Source: Streptomyces albogriseolus (GTDB taxonomy: Bacteria; Actinomycetota; Actinomycetes; Streptomycetales; Streptomycetaceae). Taken from it: a stretch of 64,000 bases of DNA. Position numbers and translations under genes: made by a program. Positions 2,691-44,766 of the stretch are shown in pieces. The notes below the pieces were generated by a model, which ran no database searches, was not told the DNA's origin, and saw nothing but the letters and a program-made list of their open reading frames with translations. Position 1 is the stretch's first letter. Each line of letters begins with the position of its first letter. The stretch lies in contig BMVA01000004.1 of assembly GCA_014650475.1 (NCBI GenBank), positions 372,001 through 436,000 on the forward strand, in the 5' to 3' direction.

Positions 2691-4342
2691 GCGTTCTCCT
2701 TCTTGAACCGCTCGTACGCCTGGTTGTGCAGCTCGATGTAGCGGTCCATGTTCTTGGCCTTGAGCTCCTTGACGTAGTCGTCCCACTCGGAGAGAGGGCG
2801 CTTGCCGAGGACGAAGCGCAGGGCGTTCTGCGTGACGTGGTCCTTCAGCGGGGTGTCCCAGAGGGTGGCCTGCTCCTGCTCCTCGGCGCGCAGCGGGTGC
2901 GGCGGGTCGGTGGGCAGCTCCTTGCGGGCGGCCATCGCGTCGGTGAACTTCTTCTCGTCGGGGCCGAACGAGGAGGACACCAGCTTCCAGCTGCCGCCGT
3001 AGGTGAACACGCCGTTGTGGAAGCCGAAGTCCTTCTGCAGGTCCTTCGGGGCGTCCGGGTCGGAGCCCATGAGGGAGATGCCGGGCTCGAGCCGGTAGCC
3101 CGCGCCGCCGGACCGGGTGAACGTGGTGTTCTCCACGCCCCACTTGCAGAACTCCTGGCCGGCGTCGGAGTACCAGAGCCAGTCCACGAACTGCATCAGG
3201 GCGACGAAGTCGTCCCGCTCCAGCGCCTTGCTGGAGATCATCATGCCGTTCTCCAGGCGCCCGCCGCCCATGACGACCGGGCCTGCCGGCCCGAGCGGCA
3301 CCGGGATCATCTCGATGGTGGCGCCCTTGACCTGCCGCTGGAGGTTGTAGCGGTAGTTCTGCACCAGTTCCTGCGCGTTGGCGCTGATCGCGAAGGCCCT
3401 CTCCCCCAGCAGCTTCCTGACCGCCTCCTCGTCGGTCTGGGTGAAGCTCTCCGGGTCCATCAGCTTCTCCGCGACCAGCTTGCGCAGGTACTCCACGACC
3501 TGGCGGAAGGCGTCGGTGGCGCCGGTGAAGACGAACGTCTCCGCCGTGGCGTCCCAGGTGGTGTTCAGGTACGACCAGCCGGCCCGGACGCCGTGCGCCT
3601 GGCCGAGGTACTGGAACAACGCGCCCGCCGGGAAGGGGGTGTTGGTGCTCCAGCGGTCGGTGAGCGGATAGCGGTCGGGGTACTCCTCACGGAGCGCCTT
3701 GAGGGTCGTGTGGACCTCGTCCCAGGTGGTGGGGAGGGCGAGGCCGTGCTGGTCCAGGATGTCGGTGCGGAAGGACAGCGAGTACTGCTGGCGGACCTTC
3801 TCGTGCAGGCCGGGGAGCAGGTAGGAGCGGCCGTCGGACTGGCGCAGCGAGTCGACCTCCGGCTGGAGGTTCCATCTCCTGACCTTGTCCTGCAAGTTGG
3901 GCATCAGGTCGATGTACTCGCTGACCGGCAGGATGGCGCCGGAGGAGACGAAGGCGGTCTCGGCGCCCGGGTAGGTCTTGGGGATCAGCAGCGGGGCGTC
4001 GCCCGCGCCGATGAGAAGGCTGCGCTTCTTCTCGTAGTCGCTGAGCGGGACCGGGGTGGCGTCCAGGGTGACGCCGGTGCGCCGGGTGAGCTCCTTCCAG
4101 AACAGCCAGCTCTCCTTCATCGGGTAGTTGGGGTTGTCGTTGTGCAGGACGGTGAAGGTGAGCGGCTGGGTGGCCTTGAACTGCTGTCCGGAGCGGTGGT
4201 TCTTCATGGCGCCCGTGCGCTTCTTCGACAGGTCCTTGGCGTCCTCGCCGTCGCCGCTGCCGCAGCCGGTGAGGGCGGCGAGGCCGATGAAGCCCGCGGC
4301 GGCGAGTATCTGGCGCCGGGAGAGCTGTCCGGTGTTCTTCAC
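2687..4342 (-). CDS. Extracellular solute-binding lipoprotein of an oligosaccharide ABC transporter (LplA type)
   Basis: A lipid-anchored binding protein of 551 residues, the capture component for the two permeases upstream. The N-terminus has a twin-arginine-like stretch (SRRQIL), a hydrophobic core and the lipobox LTGC with the lipidated cysteine at position 27. The size and the LplB/LplC-type permeases place it with the large binding proteins that take up pectin- or xylan-derived oligosaccharides in Gram-positive bacteria. The GTG start at 4342 follows AGGAG with five bases between. No ATP-binding gene is present, which is usual, because such systems borrow a shared ATPase (MsiK type in Streptomyces). 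The ligand is inferred to be an aldouronate because GH67 and GH39 genes follow in the same operon. Confidence 0.85.
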   Translation of the reverse strand: MKNTGQLSRRQILAAAGFIGLAALTGCGSGDGEDAKDLSKKRTGAMKNHRSGQQFKATQPLTFTVLHNDNPNYPMKESWLFWKELTRRTGVTLDATPVPLSDYEKKRSLLIGAGDAPLLIPKTYPGAETAFVSSGAILPVSEYIDLMPNLQDKVRRWNLQPEVDSLRQSDGRSYLLPGLHEKVRQQYSLSFRTDILDQHGLALPTTWDEVHTTLKALREEYPDRYPLTDRWSTNTPFPAGALFQYLGQAHGVRAGWSYLNTTWDATAETFVFTGATDAFRQVVEYLRKLVAEKLMDPESFTQTDEEAVRKLLGERAFAISANAQELVQNYRYNLQRQVKGATIEMIPVPLGPAGPVVMGGGRLENGMMISSKALERDDFVALMQFVDWLWYSDAGQEFCKWGVENTTFTRSGGAGYRLEPGISLMGSDPDAPKDLQKDFGFHNGVFTYGGSWKLVSSSFGPDEKKFTDAMAARKELPTDPPHPLRAEEQEQATLWDTPLKDHVTQNALRFVLGKRPLSEWDDYVKELKAKNMDRYIELHNQAYERFKKENA

Positions 4343-4398
4343 GGGGACTCCTGTGACGTGGGGGTGGACTGCGGGGTTGGGGGGAGCGCCGGCGGTCG

Positions 4399-5277
4399 TC
4401 AGCCCTTGACCGCGCCGAGCATCACGCCGGAGACGAAGTAGCGCTGCACGAACGGGTACACGCAGAGGATCGGCAGCGAGGTGAGCACGATCGTCACCGC
4501 CTGGATGTTGGCGTTGACCTGGGTGAGGTTCTCGGTGGTGGCGCCGGCGCCGGTGCCTCCGGTGGCGCCCGCGAGGAGGTTGCGCAGATACACCGTGACC
4601 GGCATCAGCTCGGTGCGGTCCATGTAGAGGAACGCCGAGAACCAGGAGTTCCAGAAGGACACCGAGTAGAACAGCACCATGGTCGCGACGACCGCCTTGG
4701 ACAGCGGCAGCACGATCCGCAGCAGGACGCCGTAGGTGCTCAGGCCGTCGATCTGGGCGGCCTCCTCCAGCTCCGACGGCAGGCTCTCGAAGAAGGCCTT
4801 CATCACCAGCAGGTTGAAGACGCTGATCGCGTTCGGCAGGGCGATGGCCCACACGCTGTTCTTCAGCCCGAGGCTGGTGATCAGGACGTAGTTCGGGATG
4901 AGGCCGCCGGTGAAGAACATGGTGAACACGGCGATCCCGACCAGCGCGCCGCGGCCCTTGAGGTGGTGCTTGGACAGGACGTAGGCGTAGCAGGTGGTCA
5001 GCACCATGGCGACGGCGGTGGCGACCACCGTGTAGAGGACGGTGTTGCCGTAGTTCCGCCAGAACATCGAGTCGGAGAAGACGATCTCGTACGTGGTGAG
5101 GTCGAAGCCCTTGGGCCACAGCGTCACGTCACCGGCGCGGATCTCCTTCTCGCCGCTGAACGAGCGGGCGACGATGTTGACGAACGGATACAGCGTGATC
5201 AGCACGACGAGGGTGAGGATGACGCCGTTGACGCCCTGGAAGACGCGGTACCCCCGGGAGGGGCGGATCGTGCTCAC
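4399..5277 (-). CDS. Sugar ABC transporter permease, LplC/YtcP type
   Basis: An inner-membrane permease of 292 residues with about six membrane segments. It carries the MalFG/LplC cytoplasmic loop that docks the ATPase (ELEEAAQIDGLSTYGVLLRI, the EAA motif, near residue 185). The N-terminal part, TLYPFVNIVARSFSG, is typical of the YtcP/LplC branch rather than MalG. The GTG start at 5277 overlaps the stop of the first permease (GTGA). It is followed by a gap of 56 bases before the binding-protein gene. It forms a heterodimer with the other permease to import an oligosaccharide. Confidence 0.88.
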   Translation of the reverse strand: MSTIRPSRGYRVFQGVNGVILTLVVLITLYPFVNIVARSFSGEKEIRAGDVTLWPKGFDLTTYEIVFSDSMFWRNYGNTVLYTVVATAVAMVLTTCYAYVLSKHHLKGRGALVGIAVFTMFFTGGLIPNYVLITSLGLKNSVWAIALPNAISVFNLLVMKAFFESLPSELEEAAQIDGLSTYGVLLRIVLPLSKAVVATMVLFYSVSFWNSWFSAFLYMDRTELMPVTVYLRNLLAGATGGTGAGATTENLTQVNANIQAVTIVLTSLPILCVYPFVQRYFVSGVMLGAVKG

Positions 5278-6266
5278 CACAGGCTCGTCCCCACCGTGCG
5301 GCGCGACAGCTGGTTGGCCGAGGTGATCAGCACCAGGCCGATGACCGCCTCGAACAGGCCGATGGCGGCGGCGTAGCTGAAGCTGTTGGACTCCACACCC
5401 GTGCGGTAGAGATACGTGGAGATCACGTCGGCGGTGGGATACGTCAGCGGGTTGTACAGCAACAGGACCTTCTCGAAGCCGACGGCCAGGAACGTGCCGA
5501 TGTTGAGGATCAGCAGCGTGATCATGGTGGGGCGGATGCCGGGCAGGGTGACGTGCCAGATCTGCCGCCAGCGGTTCGCGCCGTCGATCCGGGCGGCCTC
5601 GTACAGGTCCTCGTCGATGGTGGTGAGCGCGGCGAGGTAGAGGATCGTGCCCCAGCCGGCGGTCTGCCAGATCTCGGAGCCGACGTAGATGGCGCGGAAC
5701 CAGTCGGGCTCCTGGATGAACCGGACCGGGTCGTGCCCGAACCAGCCGAGGACATGGTTGACGGGGCCGTCCGTGGCGAGCATCTGCATCGTGATGCCGG
5801 CGACGATCACGATGGACAGGAAGTGCGGCAGGTAGGACACCGACTGCACGAATCGTCTCAGTGACCTGCGGCGGACCTCGTTGAGCAGCAGGGCGAGCAC
5901 GATCGGGACCGGGAAGCAGAACAGGAGCGTCAGTCCGCCGATCCACAGGGTGTTCCGGAAGACCTGCCAGAACGTCGGGTCGGACAGGAACATCTCGACG
6001 TAGCGCAGGCCCACCCAGTACTCGCCGAGGATCGAACCGCCCGGCTCGAACCGGCGGAACGCGATCACGTTGCCGATCATCGGCAGATAGCGGAACACCA
6101 GGAAGAACAGCAGCGGCAGCACGGCCAGCGAGTAGAGCTGCCAGTCCTTGCGCAGCGCACGCCGCCAGCCGGTGGGCGAGGGCGAGCGGGTGCGCCGGCG
6201 GGGCGGGGGCGTCGGCGGCGGGTCCTGTGTGCCCGGAGGTGGAGCCGACGTGGTGGAGCTGCTCAT
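5274..6266 (-). CDS. Sugar ABC transporter permease, LplB type
   Basis: First gene of the xylan operon, 330 residues. A proline-rich, charged N-terminal tail of about 40 residues precedes six membrane segments starting at LYSLAVLPLLFFLVF. The EAA loop (EDLYEAARIDGANRWRQIWH) is clear near residue 220. The ATG at 6266 has GGGAGG seven bases upstream. It pairs with the LplC-type permease, with which it is translationally coupled. LplB/YtcP pairs are known from the aldouronate-utilisation operon of Paenibacillus, which has the same set of transporter plus GH67 enzyme. Confidence 0.88.
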   Translation of the reverse strand: MSSSTTSAPPPGTQDPPPTPPPRRRTRSPSPTGWRRALRKDWQLYSLAVLPLLFFLVFRYLPMIGNVIAFRRFEPGGSILGEYWVGLRYVEMFLSDPTFWQVFRNTLWIGGLTLLFCFPVPIVLALLLNEVRRRSLRRFVQSVSYLPHFLSIVIVAGITMQMLATDGPVNHVLGWFGHDPVRFIQEPDWFRAIYVGSEIWQTAGWGTILYLAALTTIDEDLYEAARIDGANRWRQIWHVTLPGIRPTMITLLILNIGTFLAVGFEKVLLLYNPLTYPTADVISTYLYRTGVESNSFSYAAAIGLFEAVIGLVLITSANQLSRRTVGTSLW

Positions 6267-6296
6267 TGCCCGGGCCTCCCGTGCCTCACACAGAAC

Positions 6297-6307
6297 CGAA
6301 ACTTTCG
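6297..6307. promoter_or_regulatory. Xylanase-type operator CGAAACTTTCG
   Basis: An 11-base palindrome with one central unpaired base, lying 31 bases upstream of the first permease start and between the divergent permease and esterase genes. CGAAA...TTTCG elements occur upstream of xylan-degradation genes of Streptomyces and bind a repressor relieved by xylo-oligosaccharides. Position and sequence fit that role; the regulator itself is not in the window. Confidence 0.5.
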
Positions 6308-6345
6308 AGAACCTACCGGTAACTCCGCGGCAACCTATGAGCGGT

Positions 6346-6359
6346 GGTAAGCGCTGTCA
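6346..6359. promoter_or_regulatory. LacI-family-like operator around AGCGCT
   Basis: GGTAAGCGCTGTCA has the AGCGCT core and outer G/C pairs of LacI/GalR operators of Streptomyces sugar genes, although the arms are imperfect. It lies in the divergent promoter region between permease and esterase, about 80 bases from the permease start and 163 bases from the esterase start. Confidence 0.35.
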
Positions 6360-6521
6360 ATGGGTGCCGCACGAGCGACTTTTGCCTGTACCGGAGGCGC
6401 ACGGAAGTCCGGAACGAACCGCTGTTGAACCCGGCGAAGATCTGTTACCGTCCACCGAAATTTCCTGCGGCATGCCCGCAACGATCGGGGCTGCCGTCCG
6501 CCCGACTCTGCGAGGTGCCGC

Positions 6522-7526
6522 GTGCCCGCGTTCGACCTGCCCCCGGCCGACCTGGAGCGCCATCGTCCCGATGTCGCCGAACCCGCGGACTTCGACGCCT
6601 TCTGGAAGCGCACGCTGGAGGAGGCGGCGGGCGCGGGCGATGTCCTGCTCTCCGCCGGCCCGGTGGAGAACGGGCTGCGGCTGACCGAGACATGGGACGT
6701 GACGTTCCGCGGCTTCGCGGGCGACCCGGTGCGGGGGTGGTTCAGCCGTCCCGCGGGGACGGCCGCAGGGGCGGCCGAACCGCTCCCGGCGGTGGTGGAG
6801 TTCGCCGGGTACGGGCGCGGCCGGGGTCTTCCCCACGAGCGGCTGACCTGGGTCAACGCCGGGTACGCGCATCTGCTGATGGACAACCGGGGTCAGGGCG
6901 ACCAGTACGGGTGCGGCGGGGACACCCCCGACCCGCACGCCGGCGCGCCCGGCGGCCCCGGGCCGGCCGCGCGGGGGCTGCTCGACCCGCACGACTACCA
7001 CTACCGCCGGCTGATCACCGACGCGGTGCGCGCGGTGGACGCGGTCCGGGCGCTGCCCGGCGTGGACGCCTCCCGGGTCGCGGCGGTCGGCAACAGCCAG
7101 GGCGGGGGCGTCGCACTGGCGGTCGCGGGACTGGTGCCGGACCTCGCGGCGGTCCTGGTCACCGCGCCCTTCCTGTGCGGGATCCGCCGCGCGCTGGACC
7201 TCACGGACGCCTCTCCGTACGGCGAGATCAGCGCGTATCTCGCCGTGCACCGGGGCGCGGAGGAGGCGGCCCACCGCACCCTGGCCTACGTCGAGGGCAT
7301 CTCCTTCGCCCGCCGCGCTCAGGCGCCCGCCCACTTCGGGGTAGGGCTCCGCGACACGGTGTGCCCGCCGAGCGGAGCGTACGCGGCGTACAACCGGTAC
7401 GCGGAACTGACGGGCGGGCAGGAGGAGAAGGTGCTGCACGCCTACCCGTTCAACGGGCACGAGGGCGGGGACGCGGTGCATGTGCGGCGACAACTGGGCT
7501 GGCTGGGGAGGGTGTTGGGGGCGTGA
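6522..7526 (+). CDS. Acetyl xylan esterase / cephalosporin-C deacetylase, CE7 family
   Basis: A 334-residue alpha/beta hydrolase that removes acetyl groups from xylo-oligosaccharides; without a signal peptide it probably acts in the cytoplasm. CE7 signatures are in order: RGQG at residues 123-126, the nucleophile S192 in GNSQGG, then D278 and H313 (HE) completing the triad. The length matches CE7 enzymes (about 320-330). The GTG start at 6522 follows GAGGTG at suitable spacing. It diverges from the xylan uptake operon and should remove acetyl decorations that block the GH67 and GH39 enzymes. CE7 enzymes also deacetylate cephalosporin C, but xylan is the better guess here. The last 19 codons are the first copy of an 81-base tandem duplication. 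Confidence 0.88.
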   Translation: MPAFDLPPADLERHRPDVAEPADFDAFWKRTLEEAAGAGDVLLSAGPVENGLRLTETWDVTFRGFAGDPVRGWFSRPAGTAAGAAEPLPAVVEFAGYGRGRGLPHERLTWVNAGYAHLLMDNRGQGDQYGCGGDTPDPHAGAPGGPGPAARGLLDPHDYHYRRLITDAVRAVDAVRALPGVDASRVAAVGNSQGGGVALAVAGLVPDLAAVLVTAPFLCGIRRALDLTDASPYGEISAYLAVHRGAEEAAHRTLAYVEGISFARRAQAPAHFGVGLRDTVCPPSGAYAAYNRYAELTGGQEEKVLHAYPFNGHEGGDAVHVRRQLGWLGRVLGA

Positions 7527-35441: not shown

Positions 35442-36076
35442 TCAGGTGCCGCCGTGCGGCACGGGGGCCGCCAGGAGGGTTTTCCTGGCGAGACGGTCGG
35501 TACCGGCCGCGGCGCCCAGGCGGTGCAGGACGATCCAGCGGCCGTCGTCGTGCGCGGCGGCCACGACGGACGAGCCGCGCGTGGCGCCGTTGTGCCACGT
35601 GATCGGGGAACTCCGCTGCCAGCTGGGTGCGGGCGGGCCCAGCCGGCGTTCGACGAGCAGTCCGGTCACGACCTGGGACAGGGTCCGGCAGGTGGACCAC
35701 AGGCCGCCGGCCGGCAGGATCGGCCCGGTCAGCGTCCACAGGGGACGGGGCCGCCCGAACAGGCCCCGCGGCACGAGACGCTGTTCCGCCGGAGGCAGCG
35801 CGGTCACCGCACCCGCCTCCAGTCCCAGCGGCAACAGCACGTGCGTGTCCACCAGTTGCTGGTAGGGGCATCCCGTGACAGTGGTCAGGGCGTGCCCGAG
35901 CACGGCGTACGCCAGGTTGGAGTACTCCTCCTTGCCCAGGGGCCCGTGGCCACCCGGTCCAGCTCGCGCAGCGAAGCGCGCAGCGCCTGCTCGGTGAAGG
36001 TGGCGTACGGGTCGCCGGGCGGGCCTGCGGTCCCCGAACTGGCGTGCCCGGTGGCGTAGTCGGCGGTCCGGAACAC
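35442..36076 (-). pseudogene. Serine hydrolase (class C beta-lactamase-like), truncated and frameshifted
   Basis: Two readings join into one beta-lactamase-fold protein: residues like DPYATFTEQALRASLRELDR in one frame, then GKEEYSNLAYAVLGHALTTV through the C-terminus in another. The YSN element (YxN motif) is present, but the N-terminal region with the SxxK nucleophile is missing. One added base in the G-run at 35939-35942 would restore the frame. The 5' end stops against the sigma-factor gene. Either the frameshift is real or it is a sequencing error; the N-terminal loss is real in either case. Confidence 0.7.
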
Positions 36077-36100
36077 GTCGCCGGAACCCGCGGGCGCCAG

Positions 36101-37042
36101 TCACCACGCGGCGACGACCGGTGCGTCGCTTCCGTGCTGCCGCCAGGCCTCGTCCAGACGCACGAGCCGGTCCGCGGCGGCGATGCCGCACAGGGACGCG
36201 ACCCTGCCGTCCCGGACGTCGAACACCACGGTGCCGACGACCCGGTCGTCGACCACGGCCAGGACTGCCGGGGAGCCGTTGAGCACCGCGATGTGGAACA
36301 CGGGCGAGCCGCCGGCCAGCCGCCGCTTCACCGGCGTGGGCCTGAACCCCGCCCGCACGTAGGAGGCGACGCGCTCGCGCGTCGTGAGCCGCAGCAGCCG
36401 CTTGGCCCGCCCCGCACCGTCCGAGACCGCCGTCACGTCGTCGGTGAGCAGCGCGACCAGCCGCTCGGTGCGCCCCGATGTGGCGGCGGCGAGGAACTCC
36501 TCGACGACCCGGCGCGCGGACGCGAGGTCCACCTCCTCGCTGCCGCGGCGGCGCTCGGCGGCGACCCGGACCCGGGCCCGGTGGGCATGCTGCTGGCTCG
36601 CGGACTCGGTGACGTCGAGGATCCGGGCGATCTCGGCGTGGCTGTACGAGAAGGCCTCGCGCAGGACGTAGACGGCCCGCTCGACCGGTGAGAGGCGCTC
36701 CATGAGGGTCAGTACGGCCAGGGACACCGATTCGCGCTGCTCGACGGTGTCGGCGGGGCCGAGCATCGGGTCGCCCTCCAGGAGCGGCTCGGGCAGCCAG
36801 GCGCCGGCCGCGCGCTCGTGGCGCGCCTGCGCCGAGCGGAGCCGGTCGAGGCAGAGATGGGTGACGACCTTGGTCAGCCACGCCTCCGGCACCTCGATCC
36901 GTTCGCGGTCCGCCGCCTGCCAGCGCAGGAACGTGTCCTGCACGACGTCCTCGGCGTCGGCGGCCGAACCGAGCAGACGGTACGCGAGCGAGGCCAGCCG
37001 GCCCCGGCCGGCCTCGAAGCGTTCGACGGCTGCGCTGTCCAT
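36101..37042 (-). CDS. ECF41-type RNA polymerase sigma factor (SigJ-like)
   Basis: A 313-residue sigma factor. Region 2 is near residues 5-75 (DAEDVVQDTFLRWQ), region 4 near 125-180 (FSYSHAEIARILDVTESA). It has a long SnoaL-like C-terminal extension (about 200-313) containing SDGAGRAK and a late AAADRL, in the places of the DGGGK and NPDKL motifs of ECF41. In ECF41 the extension acts as a built-in regulator instead of a separate anti-sigma factor. ATG 37042 lies 11 bases after the oxidoreductase stop without a clear ribosome site, suggesting coupling. ECF41 genes are typically cotranscribed with an oxidoreductase-type partner, as here. Confidence 0.87.
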   Translation of the reverse strand: MDSAAVERFEAGRGRLASLAYRLLGSAADAEDVVQDTFLRWQAADRERIEVPEAWLTKVVTHLCLDRLRSAQARHERAAGAWLPEPLLEGDPMLGPADTVEQRESVSLAVLTLMERLSPVERAVYVLREAFSYSHAEIARILDVTESASQQHAHRARVRVAAERRRGSEEVDLASARRVVEEFLAAATSGRTERLVALLTDDVTAVSDGAGRAKRLLRLTTRERVASYVRAGFRPTPVKRRLAGGSPVFHIAVLNGSPAVLAVVDDRVVGTVVFDVRDGRVASLCGIAAADRLVRLDEAWRQHGSDAPVVAAW

Positions 37043-37052
37043 GTGCGGCAGC

Positions 37053-38261
37053 CTAGGCGGTGGTCCTCGCGCCGGCGCGGCCGGGCGCACCGGCCGGGTC
37101 GGGCACGGTGGTCAGGCGGCGCCTGCGCTTCGGCATGCCGAAGGTCGGGTGGGCGACGCCCCACCCGGCCCCCTTGAGCACGCCCGCCTTGAGCCGCGCG
37201 GCGGTCCTGCCGCCCAGGTACCAGGACTTCGCCCGGACGTCCCCGTCCACCATCTGGAAGATCGCGTCCCGCCGCCCGAGGCTGATGTGGTTCCCGTAGT
37301 ACTTCAACTCGGTGGCCGGGGTCTCGCCGCCCGTCAGGCGCGCGACGATCGCGGCGGTCGCCTGCATGTTGGTGAGGCCGGCCGAGGCGCAGGACATCGG
37401 CAGCGGTCGGCCGTTCTCACCGATCGCGTAGGCGCAGTCACCGGCGGCGTAGACGTCCGGGTGCGAGAGGGAGCGCATGGTGCGGTCGACGACGATCTGA
37501 CCGGTCTCGGCCACCTCCAGGCCGCTGGCGGCCGCGACGGGGTGCACGGCGAACCCGGCCGACCACACGGTCACATCGGCCGGGAGGGACGTGCCGTCGG
37601 CGGCGACCGCCCGTGTCGGCTCGACGGCTTCGACGGCGGTGTGCTCGTGGACGGTGATGCCGAACCGGTCGAAGGCCCGGCGCAGGTGCCGGCGGGCCTT
37701 CGGGGAGAGCCAGGCGCCCAGTTCGCCGCGGGCGGCGAGCGCGACCGAGAGGTCGGGCCGGGACTCGGCGAACTCGGTGGCGGTCTCGATGCCGGTCAGC
37801 CCCTCGCCGACGACCAGTACGGTGCTGCCCCTGTCCAGGCCGGCCAGGCGCTCGCGCAGACGCAGCGCCGAGGACAGGCCGGTCACGTCGAAGGCGTGCT
37901 CGGCCACGCCGGGGACGCCGTGGTGGGCCACGGAGCTGCCGAGCGCGTAGAGAAGGGTGTCGTACGCGAGCTCGCCGTCGCCGTCCTCGCCGGTCACGGA
38001 GACGGTCCTGCGCTCGGGGGCGACGCCGGTGACGCGCGCCAGACGCAGCCGCACGCCGGTGCCCGCGAACACGTCGGCGAGCCTGCGGAACGTGAGGTCC
38101 TGGCCGGCCGCGAGCTGGTGGAGCCGCATCCGGTCGACGAACTCGGGCGCGGCGTTGACGACGGTGATCTCGGTGTCCGCGGGGGAGAGCCGGCGGGCCA
38201 GGTTCCCGGCGGCGAAAGCCCCGGCGTATCCGGCACCGAGTACGACGATGCGGTGCTTCAT
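37053..38261 (-). CDS. FAD-dependent pyridine-nucleotide oxidoreductase (NDH-2-like)
   Basis: A 402-residue flavoprotein. The FAD-binding motif is VVLGAGYAGAFAA at residues 5-17, the NAD(P)H motif VLVVGEGLTGIETA near 150, and HPDVYAAGDCAYAIGENG near 275 contacts FAD. It resembles type II NADH dehydrogenases and related membrane-associated oxidoreductases. ATG 38261 follows AGGAG at seven bases. It heads the operon with the ECF41 sigma factor and is probably one of its targets. The electron acceptor is unknown. Confidence 0.87.
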   Translation of the reverse strand: MKHRIVVLGAGYAGAFAAGNLARRLSPADTEITVVNAAPEFVDRMRLHQLAAGQDLTFRRLADVFAGTGVRLRLARVTGVAPERRTVSVTGEDGDGELAYDTLLYALGSSVAHHGVPGVAEHAFDVTGLSSALRLRERLAGLDRGSTVLVVGEGLTGIETATEFAESRPDLSVALAARGELGAWLSPKARRHLRRAFDRFGITVHEHTAVEAVEPTRAVAADGTSLPADVTVWSAGFAVHPVAAASGLEVAETGQIVVDRTMRSLSHPDVYAAGDCAYAIGENGRPLPMSCASAGLTNMQATAAIVARLTGGETPATELKYYGNHISLGRRDAIFQMVDGDVRAKSWYLGGRTAARLKAGVLKGAGWGVAHPTFGMPKRRRRLTTVPDPAGAPGRAGARTTA

Positions 38262-38294
38262 GGCGATGCTCCTGTCTCGTTCGCGTGCCCCTTG

Positions 38295-38321
38295 AACGAG
38301 ACGGCGCCCCGGTTCCTGACA
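38295..38321 (-). promoter_or_regulatory. Candidate ECF41-type promoter TGTCAGG-N16-CGTT
   Basis: On the minus strand, TGTCAGG and CGTT are separated by 16 bases and end 34 bases upstream of the oxidoreductase start. ECF41 promoters are reported as TGTCACA with CGTC near that spacing. The match is good at -35, weaker at -10; it would make the operon autoregulated. Confidence 0.4.
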
Positions 38322-38757
38322 GCATCCGGGTGTGACGTGGATCACCTGATCGGGGCGGGCGGACGGACCCCGGACGTACGCCCGGGCCCGTTCCGTTCCG
38401 GGCGGTCACGACGGGGCGACGGCCGATCACGGATCGAGAGGACCCGCCCCCGTCGCCACCATCCCTGCGCTCCCCGCCCGACGCCGCGGAAGACCCGGCG
38501 CACCGTCGACTCGTCGCATCCGTACGCTCACTCAGCGCACGGGGCGCGGCACTCGCCCCAGCCCGCACCGGACCGCCACTCCGACGCCACCACTGGGACC
38601 GCGTCCCCTACCGTCCCAGGGCAAGACGGTCCGGGCGGTGCTCACAGGGCCGGCCTCCGCGGTCTCGCAACCCCGCTGACCGGCACAACAGGCGTGCCCC
38701 GGGGCCCGGTTGGGGCGTAAGGTCGTATTCCCTGAGGGAACGCGAAAGGGGAGACGC
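38322..38757. other. Gap without a gene
   Basis: About 435 bases between the oxidoreductase promoter and the NACHT-locus start. No coding frame with good bias and no repeat was seen. It must contain the promoter of the plus-strand conflict locus. Confidence 0.45.
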
Positions 38758-39162
38758 GTGGAACCCGTGGCGGCGGACCTTCTTATGGCTCTGGCGAGCG
38801 GGACCGCCGGAGCCGCGGGGCAGAACCTCTGGGAGCGGCTGCGTGCCCTCGTGCAGCGGCCCCCCGACCGGCAGCCCGATGCCGTGCAGGATGACGGCGA
38901 ACCGGAGGTGGGCGCGTTGGTCGGGGCCCTGGACGACGACGCCTCCGACGAGCAGCGAGCCGCCCGGCTGGCGGAGGGTCTCGCCCTGCGTGCCCGCCAG
39001 GACCCCGCGTTCGCCGAGGCCCTCGCCCAATGGCGACGGGAGGCGGAGCAACTGTCCGGCGCGTCGGCCGGCGGCGGCACCCAGCACCAGGAGATCTCCG
39101 GAGGCACCCAGCACAACGTCGTCTTCACCCGCGACGTCCACGGTTCGATCAACCTGGGCTGA
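38758..39162 (+). CDS. Small acidic protein with a C-terminal tag shared with the NACHT ATPase
   Basis: A 134-residue protein. Residues 1-100 are mostly helical and Ala/Glu/Arg-rich (VAADLLMALASGTAGAAGQN ... RLAEGLALRARQDPAFAEAL). Residues 110-134 carry HQEISGGTQHNVVF plus a short end. The next gene begins with almost the same 14 residues. GTG 38758 follows AAGGGGAG; an earlier ATG at 38710 lacks a ribosome site. The stop lies 17 bases before the NACHT start. The helical part could be an effector or adaptor domain and the tag a binding or assembly element. No family is known to me. Confidence 0.7.
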   Translation: MEPVAADLLMALASGTAGAAGQNLWERLRALVQRPPDRQPDAVQDDGEPEVGALVGALDDDASDEQRAARLAEGLALRARQDPAFAEALAQWRREAEQLSGASAGGGTQHQEISGGTQHNVVFTRDVHGSINLG

Positions 39163-39245
39163 CGGAGGAGGAGCGGGGCGTGGCGAGCGGCGGCGACGGC
39201 CTGCACCAGGAGATCTCCGGGGGAACCCAGCGGAACGTCGTCTTC
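39085..39245 (+). repeat. Two 42-base copies encoding the shared HQEISGGTQ.NVVF tag
   Basis: Copies at 39085-39126 and 39204-39245 begin CACCAGGAGATCTCCGG and are nearly identical. The first ends gene one, the second begins gene two, both in frame and on the same strand. Differences fall mainly in third positions and one codon. Confidence 0.85.
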
Positions 39246-42200
39246 GCGCAGGTCGTCGAGAACGTCTCCCTGCACGGGGACGGCGACCTGTACGCGGGGC
39301 ACGGCGTCGGCGCTCCCGGCGACCGCGGTCCCGGTGAGGCCGTCCTGCCGTACGCCGTCGGTCTGCTCGGGGTGTTCCTGCTTCTTTCCCGGCCCGAACT
39401 CCCGCTTCCCGCGCGGCTCGACCCGGGTCCGGTGGTCGGCGGCGGGCTGCTCCTCGTGGGCGCCCTCGGGCTGTCCTGGTGGTCCCGGCTGCGCAGGAAA
39501 TGGGCCCGCCGGCGCCGGGCCGCCTGGCGCACGCGGCGCACCCTCGACCGCGTCGCCGAGGCGCTCGCGGAGAGCCTGGTCGTCCGCTACGACGAGGACG
39601 AACGTCTGAGGCGGCTCAACGATCCGTACCCGCTGGACGTGGCGTGGACGACCCTGACGCCGCAGGCTGAGGACGGCGCCGAGGAGGAACGCCCGTCGGC
39701 GCGCCCCGACCCGCCGGACATCGCCGACTACTACACCGCCCTCCCCACACGTCGCCTGGTCGTCCTCGGCGGCGCCGGCGCCGGCAAGTCCGTGCTCGTC
39801 CTGCGCCTGGCCCACGCCTTGCTGCACCGGCGGGCCCGCGGATCCGGCGACCCGGTGCCGTTGATCGTGTCGCTGGCCTCCTGGGACCCGGACCAGGGGC
39901 TGTTGCTCTGGATGGCGGAACAGCTCGCCGACGCGCACCCGGAGGCATGCACCCTGGTGCGCGACGTCCCCCCGGCGGAGGTCGCCTTCCATCTCCTCCT
40001 CACCGGCAGGGTCCTGCCGATGCTCGACGGTTTCGACGAACTCCCCGAGCACCGGCGGGCCGCCGCCCTCCGCCAGATCGGCGAGACCCTGCGCGGCAGC
40101 CGGCCCTTCGTGCTGGCCGGCCGCGAGCCCGAGTACCGCCGGCATGTCTCCGACCAGCTCGACTTCGAACGCACCGAGATCCGCCTGAGGCCGCTCGGCG
40201 ACGCGACCGTACGGGCGTACCTCAGCCCCGGTCCGGCCCCCACCCGCTGGACACCGGTCCTGGACCGGATCGCCGGCCGCTCCCCCGCCGCGCCGCCCGA
40301 GGTACGGCGGCTTCGACAGGTGCTGTCCGTCCCGCTGATGGTGGGACTGGCCCGGGTCGCGTACGCCCGCGCCGACGCCGATCCCTCGGAGCTGCTCGCG
40401 CCGGATGCGTTCAGGTCCCGCGCCGACATCGAAAGCCATCTGTACGACGCCTTCCTGGACACCGTCTACAGCTCCTCGTACGACATCCAGGCCGCGCACG
40501 GCGGCTGGTCACCGCAGCAGGCGCGCGCCTGGATCGGTTTCCTCGCCGCGCAGATGAAGGCGGAGAACGAACAGGACTTCGCCTGGTGGCGACTGGACCG
40601 GGCCGTGCCCCGGCTCGTCTCCGGGCTCGTCATGGCGCCGGCACTTCTGGTCGGCTGGCTGTCGGTGGCGGGCCTCGCCTTCGGGCTGCCGTGGTGGCGG
40701 CAATGGCTGCCGCTGCCGTCCATGGCCGGGGCGTACGCGATGCTCTGCGGGCTGGCCTTCCTGGCGCAGGCAGCCGCGCCGGCCGCGGGGCGTCATGTGC
40801 CGCCGCGCAGGCTGCACAGGCCCCGGCGGGGGGACCTCCGGGGAGCGTTCGCCCCGTGGCGGGATCGAGGGCTGGCGGTTCTGGCCGCCCTCACGATCGG
40901 CGCCACGGTGACGGCCGTCGTCCGCCGGGACGGCTCGGTGTTTCTCTGCCTGTGGCTCTCCGGCGCAGTGGTGTGGTGGTACGGGCGCCGGGCCCTCAGG
41001 CATGTGTGGCGCGACGCCGATCCGGCCAGGGCGGACAGCCCGGCCGCCCTGCTGCGGACGGACCGGCGCAGCGTGCTCCGCGTGGGCTGGTTCGCCCCGC
41101 TGCGGCTGGGCGGCGACGCGACACCGCTGCGGCATGTGCTCCACCTGCCGCCCATGCTGCTGCTCGCCTGGCAGTCCAATGGAGGCGGCAGGGACGTCGT
41201 CACCGTTCGCGACTGGGTGCTGATGGCCGTCGCGACGCCGGTGTGCTGGCTGCTGTTCGCCTTCGGCTCCTCCGCGTGGGGCGGGTTCACGACGGCCCGC
41301 CTGTACTTCCGGGCCACGGGCCGCCTTCCCTGGCGGCTCCTGCCCTTCCTGGAGGACGCGCATGCCCGCGGGGTGCTGCGGCAGGCCGGCGGCGTCTACC
41401 GGTTCCGGCACATCGAGCTGCGGAACCGTCTTGCCCTCGGGGTGCCGGCCGCGGCGGGCGCGCGGTCCCGGACCGCGCCCGCGCGGGTTCGCCGAGCCCT
41501 GGCCGCGGCGCTCGCCGTCGCGGTCTCGGGCGGGCAACTGGTGGTGGGCTCCGGTGCCGTGGTCGGCGAGCGGGTGCCGGGGCCGGTCCGCTCACTGCCC
41601 AACGCCTGCGCACTGCTCGACGCGGCGGACGTGGCCCGGCTGATGCGGGATCCGGTCCAGGTGGCCGCTGACGACGGTGCCTCGTGCTCGGCGGGAGAGC
41701 AGGCGCCGTTCAGCCGCAACGTGTCCCTCGGCGTCAGCTGGGACCTGCTCGCCGGCGACGGCATCGGCGTCAGCGGAACCGAGTGGGCCCATGCCCGCTA
41801 CGGGCAGCTTCGCGCCGGCGCACCGAACTTCGAAGAAGATGTGCCGGCCCGGGGATTCCACCGGGATCTCAGCGGCCTCGGCCACGAGGCCTACCTGTCC
41901 GTCTGGCGCGGTTCGGGCGGCAGCTCCTACCGTGTCGAGGCGTCGAGGACGGCCAGGGTCGGCGTGCGGGTCGGCAATGCCGTGGTCCAGTTCGACTACA
42001 GCGAGGAATTCGCCTCCTCCGACCGCGTGGCCGACATCGCCCAGATCCTGGTCCGCACGGCGCTCCGCCGGGCCGGTCTCGCCGGGACACGTCCCCGCGA
42101 GGGGGATCCGAAGCCTCTGACCCGGGGCGCCACCGTGCCGGCCGTCGACCGGCCGCTCAGCTCCGTCACCCCGCCGCCGCCCGTGCCCGCCGGGGACAAC

Positions 42201-42743
42201 CGCCTCGCGTACTACAACCGGCGGGCCACCGGTTCGGTGCGGGGCGCGACCTGGCGGGGCGACGAGCGTTCCTACGTCTGGGAGCTGTCCGGCGTCCATT
42301 TCGTCTTCCGCGCGCCCAAGCAGATGGACTGTCAGAGCGCCTCCGGCGGCCCTGGCTCGTACACGTGCACGGCGGTGCCCGACGCCGTCGAGGCCGGGCT
42401 GCTCCCCGACCTGCGCCTGGAGATCAGGAGCGAACTGTGCGGGGCCTACTGCAGCGACCAGGAGACGGCCGCCTTTCTGCGCACCGTCCCCGACAACGCC
42501 ACGACCCCGTGGACGAAGCACAACGAGGCCACCTACCACACGGCCGGCGTGGTGGGTGACGGCCGCTACCGCATGGCCATGAAGCGGTACTGGGCCTGGC
42601 GGTACAAGGACAGCGGGGCCCAGCAGGCTCACCTGATGTGGGCACGCGTCGAGGTTCCGTCCGAGCACCGTGTCCTGGCTCAGAAGATCGTCAACGACAT
42701 GTACGCGCAGACGGGCGCCGACGAGATCGTTCTTGTCGGCTGA
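39180..42743 (+). CDS. Membrane-embedded NACHT-type STAND ATPase with extracytoplasmic C-terminal domain
   Basis: An 1187-residue protein. Order: tag HQEISGGTQRNVVF (9-22); two membrane segments (about 55-100); NACHT NTPase with Walker A GGAGAGKS (197-204), Walker B LPMLDGFDEL (279-288) and arginine element LAGREPEYRR (312-321); helical region to about 475; six or so membrane segments (about 478-700); a last hydrophobic segment (773-790); then some 390 residues with cysteines (LPNACALLDAADVARLM ... MDCQSASGG) that should lie outside the cell. GTG 39180 follows GGAGGAGGAG. NACHT ATPases act as signal switches, several in phage defence. Here the outside domain suggests sensing of an external or envelope signal. 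Confidence 0.85.
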   Translation: MASGGDGLHQEISGGTQRNVVFAQVVENVSLHGDGDLYAGHGVGAPGDRGPGEAVLPYAVGLLGVFLLLSRPELPLPARLDPGPVVGGGLLLVGALGLSWWSRLRRKWARRRRAAWRTRRTLDRVAEALAESLVVRYDEDERLRRLNDPYPLDVAWTTLTPQAEDGAEEERPSARPDPPDIADYYTALPTRRLVVLGGAGAGKSVLVLRLAHALLHRRARGSGDPVPLIVSLASWDPDQGLLLWMAEQLADAHPEACTLVRDVPPAEVAFHLLLTGRVLPMLDGFDELPEHRRAAALRQIGETLRGSRPFVLAGREPEYRRHVSDQLDFERTEIRLRPLGDATVRAYLSPGPAPTRWTPVLDRIAGRSPAAPPEVRRLRQVLSVPLMVGLARVAYARADADPSELLAPDAFRSRADIESHLYDAFLDTVYSSSYDIQAAHGGWSPQQARAWIGFLAAQMKAENEQDFAWWRLDRAVPRLVSGLVMAPALLVGWLSVAGLAFGLPWWRQWLPLPSMAGAYAMLCGLAFLAQAAAPAAGRHVPPRRLHRPRRGDLRGAFAPWRDRGLAVLAALTIGATVTAVVRRDGSVFLCLWLSGAVVWWYGRRALRHVWRDADPARADSPAALLRTDRRSVLRVGWFAPLRLGGDATPLRHVLHLPPMLLLAWQSNGGGRDVVTVRDWVLMAVATPVCWLLFAFGSSAWGGFTTARLYFRATGRLPWRLLPFLEDAHARGVLRQAGGVYRFRHIELRNRLALGVPAAAGARSRTAPARVRRALAAALAVAVSGGQLVVGSGAVVGERVPGPVRSLPNACALLDAADVARLMRDPVQVAADDGASCSAGEQAPFSRNVSLGVSWDLLAGDGIGVSGTEWAHARYGQLRAGAPNFEEDVPARGFHRDLSGLGHEAYLSVWRGSGGSSYRVEASRTARVGVRVGNAVVQFDYSEEFASSDRVADIAQILVRTALRRAGLAGTRPREGDPKPLTRGATVPAVDRPLSSVTPPPPVPAGDNRLAYYNRRATGSVRGATWRGDERSYVWELSGVHFVFRAPKQMDCQSASGGPGSYTCTAVPDAVEAGLLPDLRLEIRSELCGAYCSDQETAAFLRTVPDNATTPWTKHNEATYHTAGVVGDGRYRMAMKRYWAWRYKDSGAQQAHLMWARVEVPSEHRVLAQKIVNDMYAQTGADEIVLVG

Positions 42744-42858: not shown

Positions 42859-44766
42859 ATGGACGACAACGGGTTCGACTGGGGGACGTTCCTGCGGCGT
42901 TGGCAGGACGAGTGGGTGCCGAGCGAGGACGAGGCGATGGAGCTGGCGGAGGGGGACACGACCCTCGCCGATCTGGCGCTCGCGGCTCCGCCGGCGTCCG
43001 AGGGCGAGGTGGCCGACGCCGAGCGGCGCCTGGGGACCCGGCTGCCGCCGTCCTACCGGGGGTTCCTCCTGGCGAGCAACGGCTGGGCTCTGCGGGACGA
43101 CTCGATCTACCAGCTCGGGGCGGCGCACGAGATCGGCTGGTTCGGGGATCCGTTCTCCATGACGCCGATGTACCGGGAGAGCCTGGACGAGCGGGCGACC
43201 GAGCAGCAGGTGCTGCTCGCCGGGATGTGGGAACGCGCGCTGCAGCTGGAGACCGACTCCGACATGTCCTACGCGCTGCTGGACCCGGGCGACACCGACG
43301 AGGACGGCGAGTGGGCGCTGTACGTCTACAAGGGCTGGAGCGGTGAGTACCCGGCCCGGTATCCGTCGTTCCGGGCCTATATGCAGCGCCGGTACGAGTC
43401 CTTCCACGCCGAACGGGCGCAGCTGCCGGAGTTCGTCAACGACACCACCCGCGCCCGGGACGCCGACGTCGCGCGGGCGCGGGAGGAGGCGCTGAGCGGG
43501 AGGTGGGAGGCCGCCCGGGAGCTGCTGGCCGTCGCACGGCGCTACGGGCGGCCGGGGGCCTGGGGGATGCTGGGGCAGCTCGACGTCCTGGCACAGGGCG
43601 TCGGGCACGCTGGCGCGACCTTCGGGGGGCTCGTCGCCGATCCGCGCTGCACGGACGAGCTGGTGCCCGTGCTGGCCCTGGCCCGGGCGCGGGACAGCCG
43701 CCCCCACCTCGGCGCCCACCGGTTCCCGCTGGGCGTCGAGACCGACGACGGCATCCAGGCGGCCGCCGACGCGATACTCGCCCGGGTGCGCGACGGTTCC
43801 TACCGCTACGCACCGGACGGTGACTTCGGGCGGGCCGTCGCCGAGGCGCGGGAGGCCGCGCGGTGGGGTGACACGGACGGCGCGTGGCGGGTGATCCGTG
43901 CCGCGCTGCCCTCCTGGTCGCCGCCCGCACCGGGCCTGCTGGCGCCGCTCGGCCTGCTGGCCGACCCGGTTCTCGGGCCGGTGGTCACGCGGGAGCGGGG
44001 GCGGGAACTGCTGGCGACGCCCCGGGCCGGACGGACGGGCACGGCGCCCGAGCGGGTGCCGGACCTGGACCCGCCGGGGCTGAGCTGGCTGGCGGAGTCC
44101 CAGCGGTGGAACGCCCCGTTCGGCTCGTACCGGTGTCTGTGGGTGGAGGGCGTGGAGCCGGAGGCGCTGCCGGGTCTGGTCGGGCAGGACGAGGGTGCGG
44201 GCCTGACCGCCCCGCCCGTCCGTCCCGCCGGGTGGTTCCCCCACGACGTCAAGCAGCGGCGGGACGGCGAGGAGCTGTGGGAGGACCGGGCCGTGGTGGC
44301 GGTGGGCCGGACGGGCTCAGGGTGGGCGTTCGGCTTCGATCCGGCCGCGCGGACACGGGGGCCCGGGCGCCTCTTCGTCTCCCCCGCCGCCGAGGCCTCC
44401 CGCGGCGGCGGACGCGCCGTGGTGCTGTGGGTATGCCGTGGGCGCGACGACATGCCAAGGGTCTTCCACCTCTCGGTCGCCGAGCGGGGCGAGGAGCTGT
44501 ACGCGTACACGCTGCGCGGCACGGACGTCGAGCGCTCGGGGGACGTGCCCGCGGCCCTCGACCCGGAGCGGGTGCTGAGCGGGGTCGGCGACGCGGACCG
44601 CGAGCGGCGTCTGCTGGCCGCGGTGGAAGGCGAGTTCGGCCTCTCCCTGCCCCGGCACGCCCTGGCCGAGGGCATCCTGCCGGAGCTGACCACCCGGTCC
44701 TGGAACCGCGCGCCCCGGGAGGGCGAGGTCTTCGCCTACGCCACGGTCACCGTCAGCCCGCGATGA
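42859..44766 (+). CDS. Large SUKH (SMI1/KNR4) family protein
   Basis: A 635-residue soluble protein. Residues about 45-160 hold a SUKH domain: SEGEVADAERRLGTRLPPSYRGFLLASNGW with DMSYALLDPGDTDEDGEWALYVY. The remaining two-thirds is Ala/Arg-rich with repeat-like helices (about 195-360) and a C-terminal domain of unknown type (about 420-635, including GWFPHDVKQRRDGEELWEDR). SUKH proteins often act as immunity proteins against contact-dependent or polymorphic toxins. The gene is in the same orientation 115 bases after the NACHT gene and could belong to that conflict locus. No good ribosome site is seen before ATG 42859. Confidence 0.75.
   Translation: MDDNGFDWGTFLRRWQDEWVPSEDEAMELAEGDTTLADLALAAPPASEGEVADAERRLGTRLPPSYRGFLLASNGWALRDDSIYQLGAAHEIGWFGDPFSMTPMYRESLDERATEQQVLLAGMWERALQLETDSDMSYALLDPGDTDEDGEWALYVYKGWSGEYPARYPSFRAYMQRRYESFHAERAQLPEFVNDTTRARDADVARAREEALSGRWEAARELLAVARRYGRPGAWGMLGQLDVLAQGVGHAGATFGGLVADPRCTDELVPVLALARARDSRPHLGAHRFPLGVETDDGIQAAADAILARVRDGSYRYAPDGDFGRAVAEAREAARWGDTDGAWRVIRAALPSWSPPAPGLLAPLGLLADPVLGPVVTRERGRELLATPRAGRTGTAPERVPDLDPPGLSWLAESQRWNAPFGSYRCLWVEGVEPEALPGLVGQDEGAGLTAPPVRPAGWFPHDVKQRRDGEELWEDRAVVAVGRTGSGWAFGFDPAARTRGPGRLFVSPAAEASRGGGRAVVLWVCRGRDDMPRVFHLSVAERGEELYAYTLRGTDVERSGDVPAALDPERVLSGVGDADRERRLLAAVEGEFGLSLPRHALAEGILPELTTRSWNRAPREGEVFAYATVTVSPR

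What the first reader, a model, noticed from the sequence alone, without database searches (positions are those of the whole stretch)
38758..42743. Two adjacent genes share a 14-residue tag: small protein and membrane NACHT ATPase
HQEISGGTQ-[HR]-NVVF ends the first protein and begins the second, with a 42-base near-identical DNA copy 119 bases apart. Shared short tags between a STAND NTPase and a small partner suggest a recruitment or polymer-forming interaction, like the short linking motifs of other conflict systems. I know no description of this particular pair.
Basis: partly seen in the sequence, partly recalled or inferred. Interest (0 to 1): 0.8.

Follow-up and report, generated by a model that had tools for sequence, protein, structure and literature searches.

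The report
Matched tags link effector and receptor
Two neighbouring Streptomyces genes, a small helical protein and a membrane-bound immune-type ATPase, end and begin with the same short tag, and relatives show such tags changing together, so they are probably the contact through which the receptor switches on its partner, as in a known class of bacterial amyloid signalling pairs, here with an unusual receptor whose sensor seems to lie outside the cell.

Summary
HQEISGGTQ[H/R]NVVF lies at the C-terminus of a 134-aa protein (38758-39162) and the N-terminus of a 1187-aa NACHT protein (39180-42743); BLASTP between them gives E=9e-7. It is not a fresh duplication: in one relative the copies differ at 9 of 42 bases but only 2 of 14 residues. 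The small protein belongs to a Streptomyces family without a Pfam match (found in 111 of 392 genomes). Most members end in a variant of one motif, about HN-x-ISGGTxxGPVVQxRDxxG, and 26 of 102 lie beside another tag-bearing gene. Neighbours' tags resemble each other more than permuted pairings (22 clusters, p=5e-5; 2.5e-4 without the window). The window pair shares a rare Q-to-F change. This fits the published BASS/Bell-NLR amyloid signalling pairs, so the kind is known. The receptor looks unusual: tag, membrane hairpin, NACHT, membrane bundle, then a cysteine-rich domain related to exported DUF3558 lipoproteins. Most likely an external signal clusters the cytosolic tags, which template polymerisation of the small, probably membrane-active protein. 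Amyloid formation, killing and trigger are untested.

The parts
38758..39162 (+). small effector-like protein, 134 aa, GTG start; N-terminal hydrophobic stretch, helical domain, C-terminal tag
   Evidence: of 33 family members scanned the best Pfam E-value was 0.012, scattered over unrelated families
38758..39060 (+). helical domain (residues 1-101; predicted helices 6-14, 19-33, 51-60, 65-81, 83-101; residues 4-15 the most hydrophobic 12-residue window in the family)
   Evidence: AlphaFold2 model, mean pLDDT 65.8; hydropathy
39085..39126 (+). tag copy 1, HQEISGGTQHNVVF; in the family the motif runs on towards the C-terminus (39159)
   Evidence: model pLDDT below 50 at residues 102-120 and 122-129
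39180..42743 (+). membrane NACHT (NLR-like) protein, 1187 aa, GTG start preceded by a GGAGG-type ribosome site
   Evidence: NACHT PF05729 E=6.4e-9
39204..39245 (+). tag copy 2, HQEISGGTQRNVVF, residues 9-22, predicted cytosolic
39330..39485 (+). predicted transmembrane hairpin (residues 51-69 and 84-102)
   Evidence: hydropathy averaged over 6 homologs; with the window protein alone only the first passes the stricter threshold
39750..40223 (+). NACHT NTPase domain (residues 191-348), Walker A GGAGAGKS at residue 197
40614..41273 (+). predicted transmembrane bundle (six averaged peaks within residues 479-698, the one at 650-668 weak)
   Evidence: three of them pass in the window protein alone
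41493..41549 (+). last predicted transmembrane helix (residues 772-790)
41577..42740 (+). C-terminal domain (residues 800-1187), six conserved Cys (810, 836, 1051, 1087, 1091 in 6 of 6; 1063 in 5 of 6), predicted extracytoplasmic; first ~140 residues related to DUF3558-type lipoproteins

Best explanation
The pair is a two-gene amyloid-type signalling module of the BASS kind with a transmembrane receptor. The NACHT protein sits in the membrane with its tag and NTPase inside and a cysteine-bonded sensor domain outside. When the sensor meets its signal, the NACHT domains oligomerise and bring several N-terminal tags together; these form a cross-beta seed that captures and templates the matching C-terminal tag of the small protein. 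The clustered helical domains, each with an N-terminal hydrophobic stretch, then act on the membrane and stop or kill the compartment. Shown here: the shared tag, its co-variation and maintenance, the gene pairing, and relatives of the sensor region with lipoprotein signals. Predicted from sequence: the membrane topology. Inferred: tag-to-tag binding, amyloid form, membrane attack, the trigger.
For: Tag identity E=9e-7. Neighbours' tags resemble each other more than permuted pairings: 22 clusters, p=5e-5, and 2.5e-4 without the window cluster; 13 clusters with the repeated partner type left out, p=4e-4, and 0.0025 without the window. At the conserved Q column, identical non-Q residues are shared by partners in 3 of 22 clusters (F/F window, T/T L121, M/M L103), permutation p=0.0098 (column chosen after seeing the data). 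Synonymous divergence with the peptide largely kept. Of 23 NACHT loci in order of similarity, the top 4 have tag and small gene, the next 19 have neither detected. Small protein predicted helical with a disordered tag. Eight of 9 scanned tag-bearing partners (of 11 set up) have a NACHT or NB-ARC domain over the Pfam cut-off. Six Cys columns conserved in at least 5 of 6 sequences lie after the last membrane segment, one before it; that C-terminal region matches lipobox-bearing proteins, one of which, scanned alone, scores just over the DUF3558 cut-off. Described analogues.
Against: 76 of 102 small-family members have no detected tag-bearing gene within 600 bases, and in 3 of 10 genomes searched with the tag profile (G177, G237, G192) only the small gene's own tag was found. 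Without the three strong clusters L051, L121 and L093 the pairing signal is weak (10 clusters, p=0.034). Several partners match poorly (for example L070, L089, L114). L032 has a NACHT gene upstream of the small gene without a visible tag. The small protein's model has no significant PDB match, so a HeLo/MLKL-like structure is not supported. Amyloid formation, toxicity and trigger are untested. The BASS1-10 models were not available. In G027 the NACHT gene is split between two frames.
Confidence: 0.62

Rival explanations
1. The tags are a soluble short linear docking motif: they pair as a small beta-augmentation or bind a third protein, without amyloid templating, and simply recruit the small protein to the NACHT oligomer.
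For: Co-variation shows matching, not amyloid. The tag is short and glycine-rich and is modelled as disordered. The tag profile's score for a published RHIM-like BASS3 peptide is no better than for its shuffles (824 of 2000 score as well).
Against: Position (C-end of the small protein, N-end of the NTPase), length and gene pairing follow published amyloid signalling pairs. Of four published peptides tried, one, the fungal sigma amyloid peptide, scores above all of its 2000 shuffles (15.9 bits).
Confidence: 0.25
2. The tag is a recent chance duplication between adjacent genes, or is kept identical by gene conversion, without function.
For: 38 of 42 bases are identical in the window; independent codon choice would give 2 or fewer differences at the 13 shared residues in 3.4% of draws.
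Against: Copies differ at 9 of 42 bases in L052 (2 of 14 residues) and at 5 of 42 in L071 (1 of 14 residues). Motif variants occur in about 100 small proteins. Other pairs share different variants.
Confidence: 0.04
3. The small protein is an adaptor or inhibitor rather than a killer: it carries the polymer signal to other tag-bearing proteins, or holds the NACHT protein inactive.
For: Many small-family genes lack a detected tagged neighbour (76 of 102); five long ORFs match the small-family profile in a helical region followed by a tag, so the domain need not be a separate toxin.
Against: Only the two tag-bearing genes were detected in this genome, leaving no known third target here. The hydrophobic N-terminal stretch is conserved in the family.
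Confidence: 0.25

Closest known systems
BASS motifs in Bell-domain / NLR gene pairs (Dyrka et al. 2020, J Mol Biol, not held; seen as a reference and as described in PMC7889193 and PMC8086366)
   Same: Short motif at the C-terminus of a small protein predicted helical with a hydrophobic helix and at the N-terminus of an NLR, adjacent genes, filamentous actinobacteria
   Different: The window tag is an off-consensus variant of its family (Q replaced by F in both partners); the receptor is predicted to span the membrane with an extracytoplasmic C-terminal domain. Which BASS family, if any, it belongs to could not be tested
Fungal sigma amyloid motif (Nectria haematococca AAS80314 peptide; Pfam NACHT_sigma)
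   Same: The Streptomyces tag profile scores the published peptide above 2000 of 2000 shuffles
   Different: Pfam NACHT_sigma is over its cut-off in 0 of 101 Streptomyces genomes; a second, sigma-like fungal peptide scored no better than shuffles (1044 of 2000)
Fungal HET-S/NWD2 and HELLP/PNT1 signalosomes (PMC7889193)
   Same: NLR with N-terminal amyloid motif beside a membrane-targeting protein with the same motif at its C-terminus
   Different: No detectable homology of the effector domain in the searches made; NWD2 and PNT1 are described with WD and TPR repeats, not an external domain
Effector-associated domains (EADs) of STAND conflict systems (PMC8195603, passages)
   Same: Homotypic modules that link NTPases to effectors; those of one locus or genome tend to be more alike
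   Different: EADs are small domains, mostly alpha-helical; here the two proteins share only a short tag
bNACHT antiphage proteins (PMC12169576, search listing and start of abstract only)
   Same: NACHT NTPase
   Different: No PADLOC or NCBIfam defence model reached a convincing score; no phage test was made

Membership tests
BASS / Bell-NLR amyloid signalling pair | same short motif at effector C-terminus and NLR N-terminus | tested here: met
[quoted passage not shown]
   17 bases between the stop of one and the start of the other; the pair is adjacent in 3 genomes, the NACHT gene being split in one of them
BASS / Bell-NLR amyloid signalling pair | receptor with NACHT or NB-ARC domain | tested here: met
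   PF05729 E=6.4e-9
[quoted passage not shown]
   five helices predicted at moderate confidence, hydrophobic residues 4-15; no Bell model was available
BASS / Bell-NLR amyloid signalling pair | motif matches one of the BASS1-10 profiles | not testable with these tools
   source paper not held
BASS / Bell-NLR amyloid signalling pair | motif forms amyloid and cross-seeds | not testable with these tools
   needs experiment
RHIM-like BASS3 | similarity to one published BASS3 peptide | tested here: not met
   824 of 2000 shuffles score as well
Fungal sigma (Pfam NACHT_sigma) | match over the curated cut-off | tested here: not met
   0 of 101 genomes over cut-off; G000 had no match at E<=10
EAD / death-like adaptor | globular adaptor domain present in both partners | tested here: not met
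   BLASTP of the two proteins finds only the tag; no EAD family among the Pfam hits (that Pfam holds EAD models is recalled)
Antiphage NACHT system | defence model hit | tested here: not met
   PADLOC best E=0.06 (mad8); NCBIfam EruA 14.8 bits against a cut-off of 1000

The most novel reading that the evidence does not exclude
A transmembrane NLR that carries a signal from outside the cell inward by amyloid templating: an extracytoplasmic DUF3558-like, disulfide-bonded sensor drives NACHT oligomerisation in the cytosol, whose tags seed a membrane-attacking partner, with tag specificity tuned pair by pair so that parallel modules do not cross-talk.
Probability: 0.38. Interest if true: 0.78.

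Novelty: new variant of a known kind. Interest (0 to 1): 0.52.

Why it matters
A review read here (PMC7889193, parts 1-3 of 4) describes bacterial amyloid signalling pairs as NLR-like sensors with an effector and says that their outcome remains to be explored and that triggers of microbial NLRs are mostly unknown. A receptor whose predicted sensor lies outside the membrane points to envelope or neighbour-cell signals and gives a testable ligand-binding domain. The co-varying tags offer a natural set of matched and mismatched pairs for testing whether cross-seeding specificity insulates parallel pathways.

Tried and rejected
Chance or fresh duplication: rejected. Similarity to the BASS3 peptide: none. 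Pfam NACHT_sigma: not met; 28 of 101 genomes had a match below the cut-off, as had 3 of 14 control genomes; of the 35 matches listed, one fell on a tag of this study (G097:C399:26395-26490, E=4.25), the others were not checked further. HeLo/MLKL-like fold of the small protein: Foldseek gave nothing with E<=0.001, and six weak matches with E between 5 and 9; a profile search of PDB sequences gave 10 matches, best E=0.27. External domain: no Pfam hit with its own sequence in 6 of 6, no PDB sequence match; its model (mean pLDDT 60.2) gave no match with E<=0.001; LpqN is at rank 23 (E=8.2e-3), on which I do not rely. Downstream SUKH gene as a third component: in S. werraensis most of it has no match at that place, and about 1.2 kb of other DNA lies between it and the NACHT gene in both relatives, so I leave it out. 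A scan of genome contigs for the NACHT protein confirmed 1 relative among 119 candidate stretches. Plasmids: 3 of 72,556 records hold a relative, below 60% identity; not followed.

Limits. The effector set came from 107 profile hits; the 5 weakest, all long ORFs, were set aside, leaving 102, of which one had no tag located. Partner tags were sought with a profile built from effector tags, so divergent ones are missed: the NACHT gene head-to-head with one small gene of G097 shows GVFKGNVVF where that effector has GTVHGNLVQ, and the profile did not report it. Adjacent pairs (within 600 bases): 27, in 22 clusters. The pair in L059 was not among the 27, because its partner tag fell below the profile threshold, and though written into the script it was not used. 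Tag windows were cut by pattern; the one for L114 was completed by hand. The permutation test treats clusters as exchangeable, although related pairs remain. The Q-column letters were read off by hand, and the column was chosen after seeing the data. The count of residues at that column is by pattern: 90 of 101 tags classified, and it misread L121. The Fisher value ignores relatedness. The lipoprotein reading rests on 3 of the 5 short ORFs L149-L153; my script showed no usable ORF for L150 and L153.
Full report
What is there. The small gene (38758-39162) encodes 134 residues; the NACHT gene (39180-42743) encodes 1187. The shared stretch is HQEISGGTQ[H/R]NVVF, residues 110-123 and 9-22. BLASTP of one protein against the other gives E=9e-7 over 25 residues. 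No third copy was detected in the 8.07-Mb genome.

Not a fresh duplication. In the two other genomes found with close orthologs (G027, locus L052; S. werraensis, L071) both copies are present. Copies within a genome differ at 4, 9 and 5 of 42 bases (window, L052, L071), mostly at third positions, and at 1, 2 and 1 of 14 residues. Sequence right after the tags is unrelated (10 to 12 of 30 bases identical; 18 or 19 of 30 just before them).

A family with a terminal tag. A profile of 33 members (A1) finds relatives in 111 of 392 Streptomyces genomes at E<=1e-8. Pfam gave only scattered weak hits to the 33, best E=0.012. I fetched 100 stretches around members besides S. werraensis; 102 genes passed my filter and 101 had a tag located by pattern. 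Most fit about HN-x-ISGGTxxGPVVQxRDxxG; some are far from it (for example L046, L048, L135). AlphaFold2 predicts five helices and a disordered tag (mean pLDDT 65.8); the most hydrophobic window of the family is residues 4-15. The Foldseek search gave nothing significant.

Partners and co-variation. 26 of 102 family members have a detected tag-bearing gene within 600 bases, and 45 of 102 have one somewhere in the fetched stretch. Of 11 partner proteins set up, 9 were scanned: 6 have NACHT and 2 NB-ARC over the Pfam cut-off; the ninth (L121) shows TPRs and a Walker A-like site. Grouping the 27 adjacent pairs gives 22 clusters. Own partners score higher than permuted ones: mean 58.8 against 50.1, p=5e-5 (none of 20,000 permutations reached it); without the window cluster 58.1 against 51.3, p=2.5e-4; same-strand pairs only (18), p=5e-5. 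Leaving out the repeated partner type, 13 clusters give p=4e-4, 12 without the window p=0.0025; dropping also L121 and L093, 10 clusters give p=0.034. So the signal does not rest on the window alone, but a few pairs carry much of it. The window pair has F in both partners where most family tags have Q; among 90 effector tags classified by pattern (of 101), F there occurs in the three orthologs only. L121 has T in both partners.

Presence and absence. Among NACHT loci in order of similarity to the window's, the four best genomes (G000, G027, G097, G026) have both a tag and a small-family gene; in the next 19, fetched with several kilobases around, neither was detected. Against a strict rule: L032 has a NACHT gene upstream of a small gene without a visible tag, and a second NACHT gene in G097 has a divergent motif that the profile did not report. 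In 10 genomes picked for the purpose, the tag profile also hits long ORFs away from the small genes in several, so action at a distance is possible; in 3 of the 10 it found only the small gene's own tag.

The receptor. Five relatives share the layout (L071, L056, L059, L106, L101; alignment A3). Averaged hydropathy gives a hairpin at residues 51-102, six peaks between 479 and 698 (one weak), and a last segment at 772-790; two further peaks (193-211, 378-396) lie in or just behind the NACHT domain and I take them as soluble. In the window protein alone five segments pass a stricter threshold, so the exact count is uncertain. Six cysteine columns are conserved in at least 5 of 6 after the last segment; only one such column (residue 257) lies before it. 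The C-terminal domain has no Pfam match, but its profile has matches in 21 of 150 genomes; most of those outside the four close relatives are partial, covering mainly its first ~140-240 residues. Of the five short ORFs L149-L153, three could be read and have a lipobox-like signal sequence (L149, L151, L152), and the one scanned (L149) scores 34.3 against the DUF3558 cut-off of 34.1. This places the C-terminal domain outside the membrane and, with the tag inside, makes a membrane-spanning receptor; this is inference from sequence.

How it probably works. As given in the best explanation. The steps shown are the matched tag, its maintenance and the pairing; the layout is predicted. Binding between tags, amyloid form, the action of the small protein and the trigger are inferred from the analogy with described systems.

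What is known. [quoted passage not shown] PMC8086366, passages; PMC9815663, passages; PMC12261475, passages; PMC8195603, passages; PMC7885112, passages). The original paper was not held. The family here has this layout, so the kind is known; whether its motif is one of BASS1-10 could not be tested. Of four published peptides tried with the tag profile, the fungal sigma peptide scores above 2000 of 2000 shuffles, and three do not stand out (BASS3 824, Methanothrix 1308 and a sigma-like peptide 1044 of 2000 shuffles score as well). Pfam's sigma model does not support membership. In nine library searches I saw in the listings no paper on a membrane-spanning NLR with such a tag; the library lacks most subscription journals.

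Noticed in passing
window 42859-44766: SUKH-domain protein (SMI1/KNR4) downstream of the pair; in S. werraensis most of it has no match at that place, and about 1.2 kb of other DNA lies between it and the NACHT gene in both relatives, in S. werraensis with a 385-codon open stretch with hydrophobic segments on the opposite strand.
   Followed up: partly
window 35462-38686: The stretch upstream of the pair, with an oxidoreductase gene on the minus strand, has no match between the same flanks in G027, where homology resumes at 38686, about 70 bases before the small gene.
   Followed up: partly
L170, minus-strand ORF 4183-6823: A NACHT relative begins with AEYLIQIGILEGDLNLTL, an IQIG core that recalls RHIM motifs (recalled, not tested).
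   Followed up: no
L043, L062, L067, L090, L094: Five long ORFs match the small-family profile in a helical region followed by the tag; in four of them the printed stretch runs on into a P-loop, a possible fusion of effector-like domain, tag and NTPase.
   Followed up: no
L154 (G094): A NACHT relative whose C-terminal domain also matches the external domain (E=5.3e-29) but with no detected tag and no small-family gene in its fetched locus.
   Followed up: partly
L052 (G027): The NACHT gene is split between two reading frames: a broken gene or a sequencing fault.
   Followed up: no
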